A program made the position numbers and the translations under genes. A stretch of DNA of 59,124 nucleotides from Myxococcales bacterium (GTDB lineage Bacteria > Myxococcota_A > Polyangia > Haliangiales > Haliangiaceae), in contig JAEUJX010000349.1 of the NCBI GenBank assembly GCA_016794545.1, positions 1 to 59,124 of the forward strand. The letters run 5' to 3'. Positions 46,751 to 55,844 of the stretch are shown piece after piece. Position 1 is the stretch's first letter, and each line of letters begins with the position of its first letter. Below the pieces are notes generated by a model. That model was given only the letters and a program-made list of their open reading frames with translations. It was not told the origin of the DNA and ran no database searches.

Positions 46751-49700
46751 TCAGTTGCAGTGCGGCGCCACGTCGGAGCCGCGATCGAAGCGCTTCGCGA
46801 TCCGGCAGGCCTGCGCGAGCGCGGCCGCCGGCGTCGTCGGGACGAGGCGGACGGCGCCGCTCGCGTAGCCGATCGCGAGCGCGGCATGCGTGAACGCGAG
46901 GGACGTCGGAGCGCCAAGGCCGGGACCCGCGATCGCGAAGCGCGCGTCACCGGTGGCCGACCACAGCCACACGGTGCCGTCGACGCTCGCGGTCGCGACG
47001 AGACCCTGATCGCGCGCGGCGGCCGTGATCGCGCCGCGGTGCGCGGCGACCCTGCGCTCGCCGAAGACGACCGTACCGTCCTGGAGCGCGCGCACGCCGT
47101 CGGCGACGAGGCGGCCCTCGCGTGTCGAGCGCACCGCGAGGGTGCGCGCGTCGAGCGTGCGCGTGGTGCCCGCGGGGCGAACGCCGAGGAGCGTGTCCCC
47201 GTTCGGGATCAGCGCGACGTCGCCCTCGGTGTCGGCCGGCGTGTCGACGGGCTCGCCCGGAGCCGACTCGGCGGTGCGCTGCATCGTACGGGGATCCCAG
47301 GCGCGGTCGATGCCGTCGACGTGCGCGGAGTAGAGCGTCGCTCCGTCGGCGGAGAATGCCAGCGCGGTCACGGCGCGGCCGTCGGACCGCTGGTCGCCGA
47401 CGATCAGCGCGCCGCCGAGCGTGCCGATCGCGAGCCGGCCGTGGCCCGCGGCGAGCGCGGAGACCGGCGCGCCGGCGTCGACGTCGGAAAGGATCTTGCC
47501 GGTGCGCGCCTCGATCGTGCGCACGTGGCCGCCGAGGTCGCCGACGACGAAGCGCGCGTCGTCGAGCCATACGGCCGCGGTCAGCTCGCGCGGGCCCGGA
47601 ACGACCGCGATCGGTGCGCCGGAGGAGTCCCACACGCGTGCGGTGCCGTCGTGGCTCGCGGTGAGCAGCAGGTCGCCGCGCGCGAGCGCCGCGACGATCT
47701 CGCCGGTGTGCCCGAGCAGCATACCGGTCTCGGCGCCCGAGGCGGCGTCCCACAGGAACGCCGCGCCGTCGCGGCTCGCCGAGGCGATCCGATCGCCGAC
47801 CACCTCGACGACGTGCGTCTCTCCGGCGTGCGCGGTCAGCGGCAGCACGATGCCGCCGCGCTCGACGTCGGTGATCGCGAGCGGGCCGAGCCGATCGAAC
47901 ACCCCCCATGTCCCGGTCCACGCCTGGATGTTGCCATCCAGGTTGGCCGGTGCGCCGAACACGCGCGAGTGCCGCGCCCCATCGTGATCCCACATTCCGA
48001 CGGCCGCGCGATCGGTGGCCGGATCGACGACGAGGGCGGCGAGCTGCGCGGTGGTGTTCTCGAACACCACGCGCGGCGGCGCGGATGGATTCGCGAGGTC
48101 GAACGCGCGCACGATCTGGTCGTGGCCGTTCGAGTAGAGGATGGTGCCCGTGCGGTCGAACGCGCTCGTGCCGCCGAGCGGGAGCTTCGTCGCGATGGCG
48201 GTGGGCTCGCCGCCGGACCACAGCCACAGCGTGCCGTCGATCGTCGTGACGGCGACGCGGCCATCCGGGCCGAGCGCGAGCGAGCTCGCGCGCGCGGGCA
48301 GCGAGAAGCGCTTCACGACGGCGCCGGTCGCCGGATCGCGCAGCGCCACGTCATCGGCCGCGGTGATCACGCGGCCGTCGGGGAGGAACGCGCAGCCGGC
48401 GAAGTCGGCCTTCGCCTCGAACGTCACGTGCGCGCCGGTCGCGAGCTCGAACACCTCGCCGATCGGATCGAAGCCGCACACCACGACGCGCTTGCCGTCG
48501 GGCGACGCGCGCGGACGCTCGGGCTGCGGCAGCGCGGAGGGATGGCTTCCGAGCGGCTTGCCGGACCGCGCGCTCCACAGCACGAGCTCGCGCGCATCGT
48601 CCACGCCGATCAGCGTGTCTCCGACCGACGTGAAGTACTTGATCACCCCCTCGTGGCGCAGCGGGACGAGCGGCGGCCCCGCGGTGAGCGCGTCGACGAG
48701 GCCCTGCACGGCCTCCGGCGTCGGGCTCGTCGCGAGATCGGGCGCGACGGCCTGGATGCCGAGCAGGAGCGCGTCCATCCGCTTCACCGGATCGGCGGCG
48801 CTGCGGCTCGCGACGATGCCCTGCGCGCGGCGCAGCTCGCGCTCGGCCTGCGCCTGGCTCTCGGTCGCGCGATCGCGCTCGCGCCGGATCCGCACGAACG
48901 CGAACACCGCGAGCGCGAGCACGACGGCGCCGGCGACCGCCGAGATGCGCAGCGCCGTCCGGTGCTTCCGCATCCAGTGCCGCAGCAGCTCGCCGAGCGT
49001 GTAGCGGCGCGACGCGAGGAGCTGGCCGGTCTGATAGCGGCGCAGCTCGCGCGCCAGCTCGCGCGCGCTGTCGAACCGATCGGCGCGCGCGGGCGCCATC
49101 GCCTTGGCGACGATGTCCGCGAGCTCGGGCGGCACCTCTGGCGCGACGTCGGCGAGCGGCCTCGGGGCCGTGCCGTAGATCAGCCGCCGGCGGATCTCGC
49201 TCGAGTCGTTCGCGTCGGAGTGCGGCGGCTGGCCGGCGAGCAGGTGGTAGAGCGTCGCGCCGAGCGCGTAGACGTCGAAGCTCGGGTCGGGCTCGTCGCC
49301 CTTCGCCTGCTCGGGCGGCATGTAGTTCGCGGTGCCGACGCCGAACTGCGTGAGCCCGTCGGTCGGCGCCGCGCGGTAGGCGCTCTCGGGCTCGCCGCCC
49401 TGCTCGCTGACGTCCTTCGCGAGGCCCCAGTCGATCACGACGGTCTCGCCGAACTGACCGACGAGGATGTTGTCGGGCTTGATGTCGCGGTGAACGATGC
49501 CCTGCTCGTGGGCGTACGCGATCGCCTCGGCGACCGTCGTCAGGTTCGCGAGCAGCGCGAGCCGCTCGGCGACCGTCTTGCGCCTGTCGATCTCCGCGGA
49601 CAGCGGCGCGCCGCGGAGCAGCGGCATCGCGTAGAACGGCTCGCCGTTCGCGAACCGCCCCGCCTCGTGCACGCCGACGATCGCCGGGTGCTGGAGGCGC

Positions 49701-50035
49701 GCGGTCAGCCGCGCCTCGCGCTCGAACCGCCGCACGAGGATCGACCTCTCGTGCTCGGGCAGCCCCGGCTTCAGCTGCTTGATCGCGACGAACCGGCCGA
49801 GCCGGCGATCGCGGACGCGGAAGATCTGCCCCATGCCGCCCTCGGCGGCGAGCGGCTCCCAGTCGGTGTAGACCGCGTCGTCGACCACCGCGAGGCGGTC
49901 GAGGTCATCCTCCGGCGGGGACGGCGGCAGCTCCATCCCCGCGAGGTGCGCGAGCTGACGACAGCTCGGGCAGCTCGTGACGTGCGCCGCGGCCAGGCCG
50001 GCGACGATGTCCTCGAGCGAGGGATGGGCCATCAT
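46751..50035 (-). CDS. Transmembrane Ser/Thr kinase with beta-propeller (WD40-like) sensor
   Basis: 1094 residues. The N-terminus has CPSCRQLAH, an anti-sigma-like cysteine pair. The kinase domain is about 58-340: GGMGQIFRV loop, Lys86 in VAIKQ, HRDIKPDN 182-189, DWG 202-204, and GTANYMPPEQAKG. A membrane helix is at about 375-397 (RISAVAGAVVLALAVFAFVR). The rest of about 680 residues is made of repeated blades (DDVALRDPATGAVVKRFSLP, ASRDGAAFLWDAASGAETGM, SHDGTARVWDSSGAPIAVVP), a WD40/YVTN-like propeller. It is a paralogue of the TPR kinase at 37467. ATG at 50032 is also possible. Confidence 0.93.
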   Translation of the reverse strand: MMAHPSLEDIVAGLAAAHVTSCPSCRQLAHLAGMELPPSPPEDDLDRLAVVDDAVYTDWEPLAAEGGMGQIFRVRDRRLGRFVAIKQLKPGLPEHERSILVRRFEREARLTARLQHPAIVGVHEAGRFANGEPFYAMPLLRGAPLSAEIDRRKTVAERLALLANLTTVAEAIAYAHEQGIVHRDIKPDNILVGQFGETVVIDWGLAKDVSEQGGEPESAYRAAPTDGLTQFGVGTANYMPPEQAKGDEPDPSFDVYALGATLYHLLAGQPPHSDANDSSEIRRRLIYGTAPRPLADVAPEVPPELADIVAKAMAPARADRFDSARELARELRRYQTGQLLASRRYTLGELLRHWMRKHRTALRISAVAGAVVLALAVFAFVRIRRERDRATESQAQAERELRRAQGIVASRSAADPVKRMDALLLGIQAVAPDLATSPTPEAVQGLVDALTAGPPLVPLRHEGVIKYFTSVGDTLIGVDDARELVLWSARSGKPLGSHPSALPQPERPRASPDGKRVVVCGFDPIGEVFELATGAHVTFEAKADFAGCAFLPDGRVITAADDVALRDPATGAVVKRFSLPARASSLALGPDGRVAVTTIDGTLWLWSGGEPTAIATKLPLGGTSAFDRTGTILYSNGHDQIVRAFDLANPSAPPRVVFENTTAQLAALVVDPATDRAAVGMWDHDGARHSRVFGAPANLDGNIQAWTGTWGVFDRLGPLAITDVERGGIVLPLTAHAGETHVVEVVGDRIASASRDGAAFLWDAASGAETGMLLGHTGEIVAALARGDLLLTASHDGTARVWDSSGAPIAVVPGPRELTAAVWLDDARFVVGDLGGHVRTIEARTGKILSDVDAGAPVSALAAGHGRLAIGTLGGALIVGDQRSDGRAVTALAFSADGATLYSAHVDGIDRAWDPRTMQRTAESAPGEPVDTPADTEGDVALIPNGDTLLGVRPAGTTRTLDARTLAVRSTREGRLVADGVRALQDGTVVFGERRVAAHRGAITAAARDQGLVATASVDGTVWLWSATGDARFAIAGPGLGAPTSLAFTHAALAIGYASGAVRLVPTTPAAALAQACRIAKRFDRGSDVAPHCN

Positions 50036-50064: not shown

Positions 50065-51138
50065 TCAGGGCTTCTGTGCGGCGAACCGTGCGACTTTTAC
50101 CTTGCGCAGCCCCCAGTCGGCGACGTCGTCGACGACCTCGTCCTTCTCGATCTTCCAGCCCTGGAACGCCGCGGCGAGCTCGCCGGGAGCGAACCCGCCG
50201 ACCCCGGTACCGGCGGTGGCCTCCTTGCCGAAGAACTCGACGACGATCCAGCCGCCCTTCTTGATGCTCGGCTTGATCCGCTCGATCAGCTTCGGGTCCG
50301 AGCCGGCGTACATCAGCGTCACCAGGTCCCACTTCTCCTTGCCGAGGTCGTACGTGTCGATGTCGGCCTCGACCGTCGTGACCTTGGTCTTCTTCGCGAG
50401 CGCGGCCTTCGCGGTCATCTCGAGACCGACATCGGAGATGTCGACGGCGGTGACCCTCCAGCCCTGCGTCGCGAGCCACACGGCGTTGCGCCCCTGACCC
50501 GACGCGATGTCGATGGCCGTGCCAGGCTTCTTGCCCTTCGCCCACTCGGACAGGAAGTGGTTCACCGTCGTGCGGAAGCTGGTCTCCTTGCGCAGTGTCG
50601 TGTTCCACGACTCGCGCTCGGCGTCGGGGCCGCCCGGTCGCCGGCTGAGATGCGCGAGCTTCCACGCCGCGCCGTCGTGCGACCACACCGCGACATACCA
50701 GGTGATCGAGTCACCGGCGGGGTTGTCGCCCTCGGCAGGTTGGTGCTCCGCGGTCTCGCCCTGGAACACCGCGATGTTCGGGCCCAGCTGGACGCGCTCG
50801 ATGTTCCACGTGCGCGATCGGATCGGCGCGTGACGCTCGTGTCGCGCGCGCAGGCCATCGAGCACCTGCTTCGCGTCGTACCAGCGGCCGAGCCGGAACT
50901 CGACGAAGCTCGGGCCGAGCGCCGCCTCGACGTCGGCGACGTTCGCGCGATCGAACGCGTCGACCCACGCGCGCGTCTTCGCCTTGACGGTCGCCTCGTC
51001 CAGCTGCGCCGGCGCGGCGGGGGCGATCCCCGCGGGAGCGGCCCGCGGCGCGATCGTGGCCGCCGGAGGCTCGAACGGTACGGTTCCCGAACGGGGCGTC
51101 GCGCAACCCAGTAACAATAGTAAGGGAACCAACCTCAT
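50065..51138 (-). CDS. Lipoprotein fusing an NTF2/SnoaL-like domain to a SAM methyltransferase
   Basis: 357 residues. The lipobox is LLLLLGCATPR with Cys12. After a Pro/Ala linker a SnoaL-like domain covers about 50-165 (KTRAWVDAFDRANVADVEAA, VFQGETAEHQPAEG, WYVAVWSHDGAAWKLAHLSR). A class I methyltransferase domain follows (about 190-357): AIDIASGQGRNAVWLATQGW and RVTAVDISDVGLEMTAKAAL resemble the TehB-type motif I and SAM-binding loop, and the C-terminus ends in VARFAAQKP. SAM enzymes normally act in the cytoplasm, so lipoprotein export would be odd. The kinase gene lies 29 bp downstream on the same strand. Confidence 0.8.
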   Translation of the reverse strand: MRLVPLLLLLGCATPRSGTVPFEPPAATIAPRAAPAGIAPAAPAQLDEATVKAKTRAWVDAFDRANVADVEAALGPSFVEFRLGRWYDAKQVLDGLRARHERHAPIRSRTWNIERVQLGPNIAVFQGETAEHQPAEGDNPAGDSITWYVAVWSHDGAAWKLAHLSRRPGGPDAERESWNTTLRKETSFRTTVNHFLSEWAKGKKPGTAIDIASGQGRNAVWLATQGWRVTAVDISDVGLEMTAKAALAKKTKVTTVEADIDTYDLGKEKWDLVTLMYAGSDPKLIERIKPSIKKGGWIVVEFFGKEATAGTGVGGFAPGELAAAFQGWKIEKDEVVDDVADWGLRKVKVARFAAQKP

Positions 51139-51257
51139 CGATCCGGGAGACTAGCCGAGGAGCCACCGGTTGTGGTCACCAGACCGAGGTCGACTGTTCG
51201 CAGCAAGCTGCAAGTGTGCGTGGTCAGATTGCCAACCCGACGGCCCGGCGCTTGCTC

Positions 51258-54278: not shown

Positions 54279-55703
54279 TTACCGCACGGACGAGGCGTGC
54301 GCGCTCGCGGCCATGTTGGCGTTCGCCTTCGCGATGGCGTCCGCGATCATCTCGTCCTGCTTCGCCTTGTCGGACCACTTCGCCTGGATCTCGGGCGCGA
54401 GCGTGTCGACCGGATCGAAGTACAGGAAGAAGCCCGGCTTGACCGACGGCGCGGCGAACACCGAGATGCCGGTGTCGCGGTCGTAGTGCTCGAAGCTGTG
54501 GGCGACGCGCTTGCCGCCGCCGCCCGGTGCGTCGACGACGAACGTCGGCGTGTGGAACCCGGCGGTCGTGCCGCGCACGGCCTTCTCGATGTCGCACGCG
54601 GTCTGCAGCGTGGTGCGGAGGTCTTCGACGCCCTTCACGAGGTCGTGCACGTACACGTAGTAGGGCTGGACCTGGCAGTGACCGAGCCGCTTCACGAGCA
54701 GCTGCATCACGGCGATGGTGTCGTTGACGCCGCGCTGGAGCACGCTCTGGTTGCGCGTGATGATGCCGCGCTCGAACACGCCGTCGAGCGCGCGCTTGGT
54801 GATCGCGGTGATCTCGTTCGGGTGGTTAAAGTGCGTGTGGAGGACGACCTCCTTGTGCAGCTTGCGGCCGCGCTCGACGACCGCGGTCAGCGCGTCGAGC
54901 CACTCGTGATCCGTGATCAGCTTCATCGGCATCACGGCGGGACCCTTGGTCGCGAACCGGATGCGGCGGATGTTCGGCAGCTCGAGGAGCTTGTTGCCGA
55001 TCAGCGTGATCTGCCGGGCCTTCAGCTGGTAGCTGTCGCCGCCGGAGACCACGATGTCCTCGAGCTCGGGGCGCTCGCTGATGTAGCGGAACGCGCGCTC
55101 CCAGCGCTCCTCGGTCGCCTTCAGCGAGACCTTCTCGACCTCGTCGGTGTCGACGCCGACCGCGTAGCTGCGCGTGCAGAACCGGCAGTACACCGGGCAG
55201 GTGTCGAGCGCGAGGAACAGCGCCTTGTCGGGATACCGGTGCGTGAGGCCCGGCACCGGCGCGTCGGCCTGTTCGTGCAGCGAGTCGAGCGTCAGCTTCG
55301 GGTGATCGGGCAGGAGGCGCGAGGCGACCGGGACGAACTGCCGGCGCAGCGGATCCGTGTACGCGTTCGACCAGTCGATCAGCGACAGCAGGTACGGCGA
55401 CACGCGGATCGACATCGGCGCGAGGTGGAAGCCCTTCGACACGTCGTCGTAGAAGCTCTGAGGCACCAGGTCCTGGACGGCCTGGAGGAGCTTCTGCGGG
55501 TTCGTGATCGTGTTCTTCGCCTGCCACGTGTGGTCGAGGAACGTCGCCTCGTCGACCAGCCGGTAGGCGGGGATCTTCTGCCAGAACGCCCCGTCGAGGA
55601 GCTGGCGGTGGTGCAGCGTCGACGGATCGACGGGCGCCTTGATGTGCTTGATCGGGGCGAGCTCGGGCGGCTTGCTGCCGAGGAGCTTGAGCTGGGTATC
55701 CAT
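54279..55703 (-). CDS. KamA-family radical SAM aminomutase (lysine 2,3-aminomutase-like)
   Basis: 474 residues. The radical SAM cluster motif is CPVYCRFC in LALDTCPVYCRFCTRSYAVG (CxxxCxxC). PLP-binding Lys is in VVDAPGGGGKR, and the two Asp residues that hold the substrate amino group in lysine aminomutase appear to be kept (YVYVHDLV and FVVDAPGG). Conserved FNHPNEIT and NQSVLQRGVNDT are also present. It should move the amino group from C2 to C3 of lysine or a close relative. No beta-lysine acetyltransferase neighbour is in the window. ATG 55703 is the best start. Confidence 0.88.
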   Translation of the reverse strand: MDTQLKLLGSKPPELAPIKHIKAPVDPSTLHHRQLLDGAFWQKIPAYRLVDEATFLDHTWQAKNTITNPQKLLQAVQDLVPQSFYDDVSKGFHLAPMSIRVSPYLLSLIDWSNAYTDPLRRQFVPVASRLLPDHPKLTLDSLHEQADAPVPGLTHRYPDKALFLALDTCPVYCRFCTRSYAVGVDTDEVEKVSLKATEERWERAFRYISERPELEDIVVSGGDSYQLKARQITLIGNKLLELPNIRRIRFATKGPAVMPMKLITDHEWLDALTAVVERGRKLHKEVVLHTHFNHPNEITAITKRALDGVFERGIITRNQSVLQRGVNDTIAVMQLLVKRLGHCQVQPYYVYVHDLVKGVEDLRTTLQTACDIEKAVRGTTAGFHTPTFVVDAPGGGGKRVAHSFEHYDRDTGISVFAAPSVKPGFFLYFDPVDTLAPEIQAKWSDKAKQDEMIADAIAKANANMAASAHASSVR

Positions 55704-55844
55704 GGGGCGAACCTTCTGCTTGACGTTCACGGAAGAGAAAACGGCGGAGACGCGGTCTTCAATCCGTGACGTCGGGCTGGTGCGGGACAGAGCCCAGGTA
55801 CCACATGGTTCTGGACAGATATCACGCTCCCGCCCGCGGGCCAA

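What the first reader, a model, noticed from the sequence alone, without database searches (positions are those of the whole stretch)
50065..51138. A SAM methyltransferase built as a lipoprotein
A clear lipobox at Cys12 precedes a SnoaL-like domain and a TehB-like methyltransferase domain. SAM is not expected in the periplasm. Either the enzyme is exported and works on a methyl donor that is also exported, or the lipobox is fortuitous, or the methyltransferase fold has another use. A -10-like TAGTCT is 9 bases before the ATG, so the start is probably real.
Basis: partly seen in the sequence, partly recalled or inferred. Interest (0 to 1): 0.55.

Follow-up and report, generated by a model that had tools for sequence, protein, structure and literature searches.

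The report
Methyltransferase exported as a lipoprotein
This bacterium, and relatives in at least three phyla, appear to send a methyl-transferring enzyme out of the cell interior on a lipid or membrane anchor, although its usual fuel, S-adenosylmethionine, is thought to stay inside cells.

Summary
The ORF is on the minus strand (51138 to 50065, 357 aa): lipobox at Cys12, NTF2-like DUF4440 domain, class I SAM-methyltransferase domain. The start is secure: a stop lies 4 codons upstream, no start codon lies between codons 8 and 92, and a TAnnnT box precedes the ATG by 5-9 bases in 10 of 11 family genes, against 56 of 3908 ATGs in the same loci. All 11 genus proteins with an intact 5' end show MR, a hydrophobic stretch and Cys at 12-17; 9 pass a strict lipobox rule (12 of 160 other genes). 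"Fortuitous lipobox" is rejected. Relatives without DUF4440 in Acidobacteriota and Planctomycetota are also exported, by lipobox, Sec-type signal or TM anchor (labels by eye). In a 59-row tree they share one side of a supported branch (99/96), with three signal-less rows nested inside; a 65-row tree agrees, with one exported row just outside. SAM motifs are invariant there (33 of 33). Best reading: an old clade of extracytoplasmic methyltransferases, here fused to an NTF2-like domain. Activity, substrate and SAM source are not shown. Seven literature searches (listings only) described no such clade.

The parts
50065..51138 (-). CDS, 357 aa: lipoprotein signal, linker, DUF4440 (NTF2-like) domain, class I SAM-methyltransferase domain
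   Evidence: ORF and translation; Pfam; AlphaFold2 model pLDDT 91.0, pTM 0.81; homologues
51103..51138 (-). Signal peptide MRLVPLLLLLG and lipobox Cys12 (residues 1-12)
   Evidence: same kind of N-terminus in all 11 genus members with an intact 5' end (window's included), 9 of 11 by a strict rule against 12 of 160 other called genes
51148..51153 (-). -10-like box TAGTCT, 9 bases before the ATG, probably a leaderless promoter
   Evidence: TAnnnT 5-9 bases before the ATG in 10 of 11 family genes against 56 of 3908 ATGs in the same loci
51004..51102 (-). Ala/Pro-rich linker, residues 13-45
   Evidence: mostly lower pLDDT in the model
50656..50985 (-). DUF4440 (NTF2-like) domain, residues 52-161
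   Evidence: PF14534 30.1 bits, cut-off 25.2; 11 of 12 family members match at E 0.01; domain model pLDDT 94.9, nearest solved folds CaMKII hub and ketosteroid isomerase-like
50068..50634 (-). Class I SAM-methyltransferase domain, residues 169-357
   Evidence: PF13649 43.1 bits, cut-off 27; Foldseek Slr1183 E 5.0e-13 and TehB E 7.5e-13; VIA Z 22.6 to 20.9 for the first rows
50485..50511 (-). SAM motif I, D210-I-A-S-G214-Q-G216-R217-N218
   Evidence: D210, G214, G216, R217 and N218 each in 33 of 33 exported-clade rows
50440..50442 (-). D233, acidic residue at the end of beta-2 (expected ribose contact)
   Evidence: 33 of 33 exported-clade rows; role recalled from class I methyltransferases

Best explanation
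The protein is a true lipoprotein. It is made from a probably leaderless message, carried through Sec, lipidated at Cys12 and held by its Ala/Pro linker on a membrane outside the cytoplasm. Its NTF2-like domain probably helps to assemble the protein or hold the substrate, and its class I domain probably binds SAM and methylates a small, possibly toxic, molecule there (TehB/Slr1183-type chemistry). It belongs to an old clade of methyltransferases that are exported in Myxococcota, Acidobacteriota and Planctomycetota with interchangeable anchors. Shown by sequence: the start, the lipoprotein signal, its conservation, the domains, the intact SAM motifs and the clade. Inferred: lipidation, location, SAM binding, methylation, and SAM reaching the site by leakage, release from lysed neighbours or an unknown exporter.
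For: Secure start with a shared promoter box, 10 of 11 against 56 of 3908. Lipoprotein-type N-termini in all 11 intact genus members; the family rows of A1 are 36-54% identical to the window protein. Tree of 59 domains: the 36-row side holding every row labelled exported is supported 99/96; exported against cytosolic needs 2 changes; the fusion rows form one clade of 12 at 100/95. A 65-row tree with five new Acidobacteriota rows and G014 also needs 2 changes. Hydropathy separates 21 typed exported N-termini (best 9-residue mean at least 2.31) from 12 typed signal-less ones (at most 1.64). A second sample of Acidobacteriota genomes gave 6 of 7 loci with export-type N-termini, 4 of the 5 new ones. 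SAM motifs 33 of 33, with clade-typical D341/W342/R351 at 29, 30 and 32 of 33. Confident class I fold.
Against: No extracytoplasmic SAM pool is known to me (recalled). The own genome has one match to the SAM synthetase N-terminal family, and its N-terminus has no signal. No substrate-telling neighbour is conserved: outside the genus neighbours look different from locus to locus (by eye); inside it a KamA-type gene is near in 7 of 12 fusion loci and a selenoprotein gene in 4. Export labels are by eye; signal-prediction software was not at hand. Three rows inside the clade (L065, L067, L082) have no signal. Rows L063, L075 and L080 have only short hydrophobic starts, and L171 has a lipobox-like Cys but no basic residue at its ATG. 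The clade is rare: 7 of 119 genomes sampled from the phylum of L054, and of 11 of 282 Myxococcota genomes matched at E 1e-30 I know only the window's as exported.
Confidence: 0.55

Rival explanations
1. Exported lipoprotein whose methyltransferase fold is a binding module: it captures SAM, SAH or a similar nucleoside (sensing or scavenging) and does not methylate.
For: No donor pool is known outside the cytoplasm (recalled); the sequence tools cannot see catalysis; the N-terminal domain has an NTF2-like fold, often ligand-binding or oligomerising (recalled).
Against: The clade keeps residues beyond the SAM motifs, such as W227, G266, W270, D271, Y277, D341, W342 and R351 at 29-33 of 33 rows, as expected of an active site with a shared substrate.
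Confidence: 0.22
2. Exported enzyme that uses SAM or a related compound for another reaction (alkyl or aminopropyl transfer, SAM cleavage, cyclisation), or methylates a lipid or protein rather than a small molecule.
For: The fold is shared with many chemistries; structure hits include the cyclase SpnF and a phosphatidylethanolamine N-methyltransferase besides TehB and halide methyltransferases.
Against: The best sequence and fold hits are Slr1183- and TehB-like methyltransferases.
Confidence: 0.15
3. Cytoplasmic methyltransferase; the lipobox is chance, or translation starts downstream.
For: SAM is cytoplasmic (recalled); the signal peptide is very short (11 residues before Cys) with one Arg.
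Against: No start codon between codons 8 and 92; same kind of N-terminus in all 11 intact genus members; promoter box; exported clade.
Confidence: 0.04
4. The enzyme is loaded with SAM in the cytoplasm and exported folded through Tat, acting once or as a carrier.
For: One relative (L069) has a twin-arginine-like start, SGRRQFLQS.
Against: The 11 intact genus proteins begin MR plus a hydrophobic stretch, without a twin arginine.
Confidence: 0.04

Closest known systems
Slr1183 of Synechocystis (PDB 2kw5, 3mer, 2n47)
   Same: Closest solved relative by profile (E 6.9e-26) and first in Foldseek (E 5.0e-13); same class I domain and GxGRN motif
   Different: 202 residues aligned from residue 1, so no room for a signal or NTF2-like domain; not put in our trees, but rows with its LCLAEGEGRN type of motif (L121, L125, L129, L014, L016, L018) fall on the cytosolic side
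TehB (PDB 2xva, 2xvm, 4dq0, 2i6g, 3m70)
   Same: Same fold; Pfam TehB passes its cut-off
   Different: NCBIfam TehB equivalogs far below cut-off; TehB is cytoplasmic (recalled)
DUF4440 / NTF2-like domains
   Same: The N-terminal domain is a DUF4440 with an NTF2-like fold
   Different: Joined here to a methyltransferase on one lipoprotein
Exported relatives in Acidobacteriota and Planctomycetota (among L054-L081, L169-L171)
   Same: Same methyltransferase clade with export-type N-termini
   Different: No DUF4440 seen; many carry another N-terminal helical-looking segment; L170 carries a second methyltransferase domain
Secreted methyltransferases of Mycobacterium tuberculosis (recalled; papers listed, not opened)
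   Same: Methyltransferases that leave the cell
   Different: Thought to act inside host cells, where SAM is at hand (recalled); not lipoproteins as far as I recall; no homology tested

Membership tests
Bacterial lipoprotein | N-terminal signal with basic residue, hydrophobic stretch and lipobox Cys | tested here: met
   MRLVPLLLLLG/C; strict rule met (Cys12)
Bacterial lipoprotein | Signal conserved in homologues and start codon secure | tested here: met
Bacterial lipoprotein | Lipid attached at Cys | not testable with these tools
   needs palmitate labelling, mass spectrometry or globomycin
Class I SAM-dependent methyltransferase | Rossmann fold with motif I (DxxxGxG) and an acidic residue after beta-2 | tested here: met
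Class I SAM-dependent methyltransferase | Binds SAM and transfers methyl | not testable with these tools
   needs protein
TehB (tellurite resistance methyltransferase) | Pfam TehB model over cut-off | tested here: met
   34.4 bits against 20.4
TehB (tellurite resistance methyltransferase) | NCBIfam TehB equivalog cut-off | tested here: not met
   47 against 303, 35.9 against 218, 33.7 against 219.5; not filed as TehB
DUF4440 | Pfam PF14534 over cut-off | tested here: met
   30.1 against 25.2; 11 of 12 family members match at E 0.01
SnoaL_3 | Pfam PF13474 over cut-off | tested here: not met
   12.9 against 22

The most novel reading that the evidence does not exclude
A whole clade of SAM-dependent methyltransferases works outside the inner membrane in diderm bacteria of at least three phyla, with lipid, soluble and transmembrane forms exchanged in evolution. 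That implies a usable SAM pool in the periplasm or at the cell surface (exported, leaked or taken from lysed neighbours). The window protein is the myxobacterial version, joined to an NTF2-like domain.
Probability: 0.5. Interest if true: 0.78.

Novelty: new variant of a known kind. Interest (0 to 1): 0.6.

Why it matters
SAM-dependent methylation is taken to be a cytoplasmic affair in bacteria (recalled). A conserved exported clade with an untouched SAM site makes the question of extracytoplasmic SAM directly testable: one purified domain, one fractionation and a SAM measurement in periplasm or culture fluid would go far to decide it. A positive result would add a compartment to methyl chemistry (detoxification, volatile production, signalling) and call for a SAM export or scavenging route. 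A negative one would reveal a repurposed methyltransferase fold spread over several phyla.

Tried and rejected
Fortuitous lipobox or downstream start: rejected. Substrate from gene neighbourhood: in the genus a KamA-type gene lies near in 7 of 12 fusion loci (own, G007, G013, G003, G012, G008, G002a). Three of these were checked with Pfam or NCBIfam (own; G007 and G008), the other four judged by their N-terminal sequence. Some loci are short contigs, so absence there means little. An AhpD-like selenoprotein gene lies downstream in G007, G012, G014 and G002a, with an AraC-type gene in G012 and G008 and a metallo-beta-lactamase-fold gene in G007, G012 and G008 (the G008 one by N-terminal sequence). 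In the own genome the selenoprotein gene is on another contig. Outside the genus the neighbours in 24 loci share nothing obvious by their first 60 residues; no family search was made on them. No substrate was inferred. Gene calls in 28 and 52 are from a home-made codon scorer, not a standard gene finder.

Exported SAM supply: one match to the SAM synthetase N-terminal family in the own genome, without a signal; two PNP_UDP matches, one reading as a nucleoside phosphorylase without a clear signal, the other not resolved. This does not exclude leakage or an unknown exporter.

Plasmid records: 39 of 72,556 hold a weak match, none covering 80% of the query. Scan of genome contigs with the single protein: 48 stretches, no relative; the scan with alignment A1 gave 55 loci.

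Literature (listings only, no paper opened): searches listed nothing on periplasmic or lipoprotein SAM-methyltransferase clades. One search (8 listed of 9) held plant-pathogen and M. tuberculosis papers with the phrase 'secreted methyltransferase'; one search listed 20 of 33, all by the term 'periplasmic sam', which also matches 'periplasmic sample'. Most subscription papers are not in that library.

Rows dropped before counts: G009 (contig edge cuts its N-terminus) and L051 (start unresolved; a GTG start would give a lipobox-like VSSC) from the lipobox and promoter counts; L049, L051 and the three short-start rows L063, L075, L080 from the exported/cytosolic change count, though they are among the 33 clade rows. 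In the hydropathy test L072, L075 and the other genus proteins were not typed; 3 of the 12 signal-less N-termini are the nested rows L065, L067, L082. N-termini of 38 of the 55 loci were read; of the other 17, 10 are the genus loci, read, and 7 are Rhodococcus rows (L086-L088, L090-L093) whose N-termini were not read. L168 repeats L074 and L165 is the L054 protein in the second sample; L173 there has no signal. Of the 11 matches the window's own and L179 (cytosolic type) were read; places of G293 and G234 had been read as cytosolic type, the others not.

Full report
What is there. The gene runs on the minus strand from 51138 to 50065 and codes for 357 residues. Residues 1-12 are MRLVPLLLLLGC. 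Residues 13-45 are an Ala/Pro-rich linker. Residues 52-161 match DUF4440 over its Pfam cut-off, and residues 169-357 form a class I methyltransferase domain with several methyltransferase models over cut-off. AlphaFold2 gives mean pLDDT 91.0 and pTM 0.81; the ten-residue blocks below 70 are the first four. Foldseek puts Slr1183 (E 5.0e-13) and TehB (7.5e-13) first, and VIA-align Z values run from 22.6 to 20.9 for Methanosarcina enzymes, a mycobacterial heterocyclic toxin methyltransferase, Slr1183 and TehB. The N-terminal domain modelled alone (pLDDT 94.9) matches CaMKII hub and ketosteroid isomerase-like folds, that is, NTF2-like.

Is the start real? Yes, as far as sequence can tell. The frame is open only 4 codons upstream of the ATG. 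Within the first 110 codons the only start codons are 1, 3, 8 and 92, the last inside the DUF4440 domain. A TAnnnT box stands 5-9 bases before the ATG in 10 of 11 family genes, against 56 of 3908 ATGs in the same loci, the family's own included. The family genes are related, so the binomial figure printed there overstates the case, but the boxes differ in sequence and spacing. Of 125 called genes with ATG starts (family genes among them) 29 have such a box, so leaderless promoters seem common in this genus.

Is the lipobox real? The fusion was found in 11 of 16 genomes of the window's genus, as 12 proteins, and once more in an uncultured Myxococcales record (L051). It was not seen elsewhere among 377 genomes drawn from the phylum, though that search scored only 5 candidates a genome. 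Of the 12 genus proteins one (G009) is cut by a contig end. The other 11, the window's included, have an ATG from which they read MR, a hydrophobic stretch and a Cys at 12-17; in some, upstream starts also exist in frame and the ATG was chosen by me. A strict lipobox rule passes 9 of these 11 and 12 of 160 other called genes of at least 100 aa in the same loci. The two that fail are G012 (an Asn in the hydrophobic stretch) and G002b (Gly at -3). The family rows of A1 are 36-54% identical to the window protein, so the signal is kept while the sequence has moved.

How far does export go? A scan of genome contigs with the family alignment gave 55 loci; N-termini of 38 were read and those of the genus. 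Outside Myxococcota no DUF4440 was seen. By eye, Acidobacteriota members show lipoboxes (L054, L055, L058), Sec-type signals (for example L056, L060, L064, L070, L076, L077; also L081, a record named only 'bacterium'), one twin-arginine-like start (L069) and transmembrane anchors (L062, L074); two Planctomycetota members show lipoboxes (L057, L066); L065, L067 and L082 (Actinomycetota, Deinococcota) and the other actinobacterial rows read show none; the Nitrospira rows are fused to another domain without a signal. A same-order Myxococcota genome (G032) has a transmembrane-anchored form. In a tree of 59 domains the side with every row labelled exported holds 36 rows (99/96) and the other side 23 cytosolic rows; the exported/cytosolic label needs 2 changes, the second being the three signal-less rows nested in the exported side. 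The fusion rows form one clade of 12 (100/95), 13 with G014 (100/97). The root is not inferred, so which state came first is inference; the simplest reading is one gain of export and one loss.

A check that did not depend on the GQGRN pattern: a profile search of 119 genomes of the phylum of L054 gave 7 matches. L165 is the L054 protein and L168 is the same sequence as L074. Of the 5 new ones, L169 has a transmembrane anchor, L171 a lipobox-like Cys (without a basic residue at its ATG), L172 a Sec-type signal, and L170 a signal followed by two methyltransferase domains (Pfam, two stretches); L173 has no signal. So 6 of 7, or 4 of 5 new ones, have export-type N-termini. In a 65-row tree L169, L170 and L171 fall on the exported side (40 rows, 99/94), L173 among the cytosolic rows, and the exported L172 branches just outside, at the base of the cytosolic side; the label still needs 2 changes. 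L171 is a long branch, its place unsure. The best 9-residue hydropathy in the first 30 residues is at least 2.31 in 21 typed exported N-termini and at most 1.64 in 12 typed signal-less ones; these starts were chosen by eye. In Myxococcota the clade is rare: 11 of 282 genomes matched at E 1e-30, the window's among them, and of the other ten the three read are of the cytosolic type.

Is the SAM site kept? In 33 exported-clade rows D210, G214, G216, R217, N218 and D233 are all invariant; in 23 cytosolic rows position 210 is Asp in 16 and 233 Asp in 21. The exported clade has residues of its own: M213 (30 of 33; the window protein has Ser), Q215 (31), G266, W270 and D271 (33), D341 (29), W342 (30), R351 (32). 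In the cytosolic rows 351 is Arg in 3 of 23. This argues against decay to a dead fold and for a shared, clade-specific reaction or ligand. Catalysis itself is not shown.

How it probably works. Sec export, lipidation at Cys12 and anchoring outside the cytoplasm are inferred from the signal. Methylation of a small molecule is inferred from the family (TehB, Slr1183 and halide/thiol methyltransferases). The donor is the gap: the own genome has one match to the SAM synthetase N-terminal family, without a signal, and no exported supply was seen. Leakage, lysed neighbours or an unknown exporter are guesses. A binding-only role stays open.

Neighbourhood. In the window the next gene on the same strand, 29 bases on, is a Ser/Thr kinase with WD40 repeats (46751-50035). 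No gene directly beside the other copies looked like it by its first residues; in G013 a kinase with TPR repeats lies about 1.9 kb upstream of the fusion gene. In 4 genomes of the genus an AhpD/CMD-like gene downstream has an in-frame TGA where the second active-site Cys would be (NECEF-U; the Cys role is recalled). 13 of 16 genus genomes hold this gene, each best match with one TGA, and tRNA-Sec is over its cut-off in 15 of 16. In the window's genome it is on another contig, so a link to the methyltransferase is unproven.

Membership and novelty. It is a class I methyltransferase by fold and motif, a lipoprotein by signal, and a DUF4440 protein. It is not filed as TehB because the NCBIfam TehB equivalog cut-offs are not met. 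Seven literature searches (listings only) showed no account of a lipoprotein or periplasmic SAM-methyltransferase clade; the library lacks most subscription papers. Secreted methyltransferases of M. tuberculosis are in print (recalled; listings), but are thought to act inside host cells. I call the finding a new variant of a known kind: known fold, unexpected place, with a clade behind it.

Noticed in passing
L031:11083-11667 (+), L034:8333-8908 (+), L035:326-907 (-), L037:5705-6289 (+): AhpD/CMD-like candidate selenoprotein with a conserved in-frame TGA at codon 82 (NECEF-U-xxxH), near the methyltransferase lipoprotein in 4 genomes; 13 of 16 genus genomes hold it, each best match with one TGA, and tRNA-Sec is over cut-off in 15 of 16. 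It scores below the cut-off of the NCBIfam seleno-AhpD model. No SECIS search was made.
   Followed up: partly
L170:592-2046 (+): Protein from the Acidobacteriota sample with a signal peptide followed by two methyltransferase domains in tandem, the second falling on the exported side of the tree.
   Followed up: partly
window and loci L031-L042: Leaderless-type promoters look common in this genus: 29 of 125 called ATG genes have TAnnnT 5-9 bases before the start, against 56 of 3908 ATGs in all.
   Followed up: partly
window 46751-50035 (-): Ser/Thr protein kinase with C-terminal WD40 repeats, 29 bases downstream of the methyltransferase gene; not seen directly beside the other copies by first residues.
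   Followed up: no
window 54279-55844 (-): KamA-family radical SAM protein (TIGR00238 over cut-off); like genes lie near the fusion gene in 6 other fusion loci of the genus (two of the six checked as LAM_C/Radical_SAM-type).
   Followed up: partly
L072, L077, L056, L060 and others: Many Acidobacteriota relatives share an extra N-terminal segment of about 80 residues between signal and catalytic domain (W..Y..W ... G...AxxR, by eye), where the myxobacterial proteins have DUF4440.
   Followed up: no
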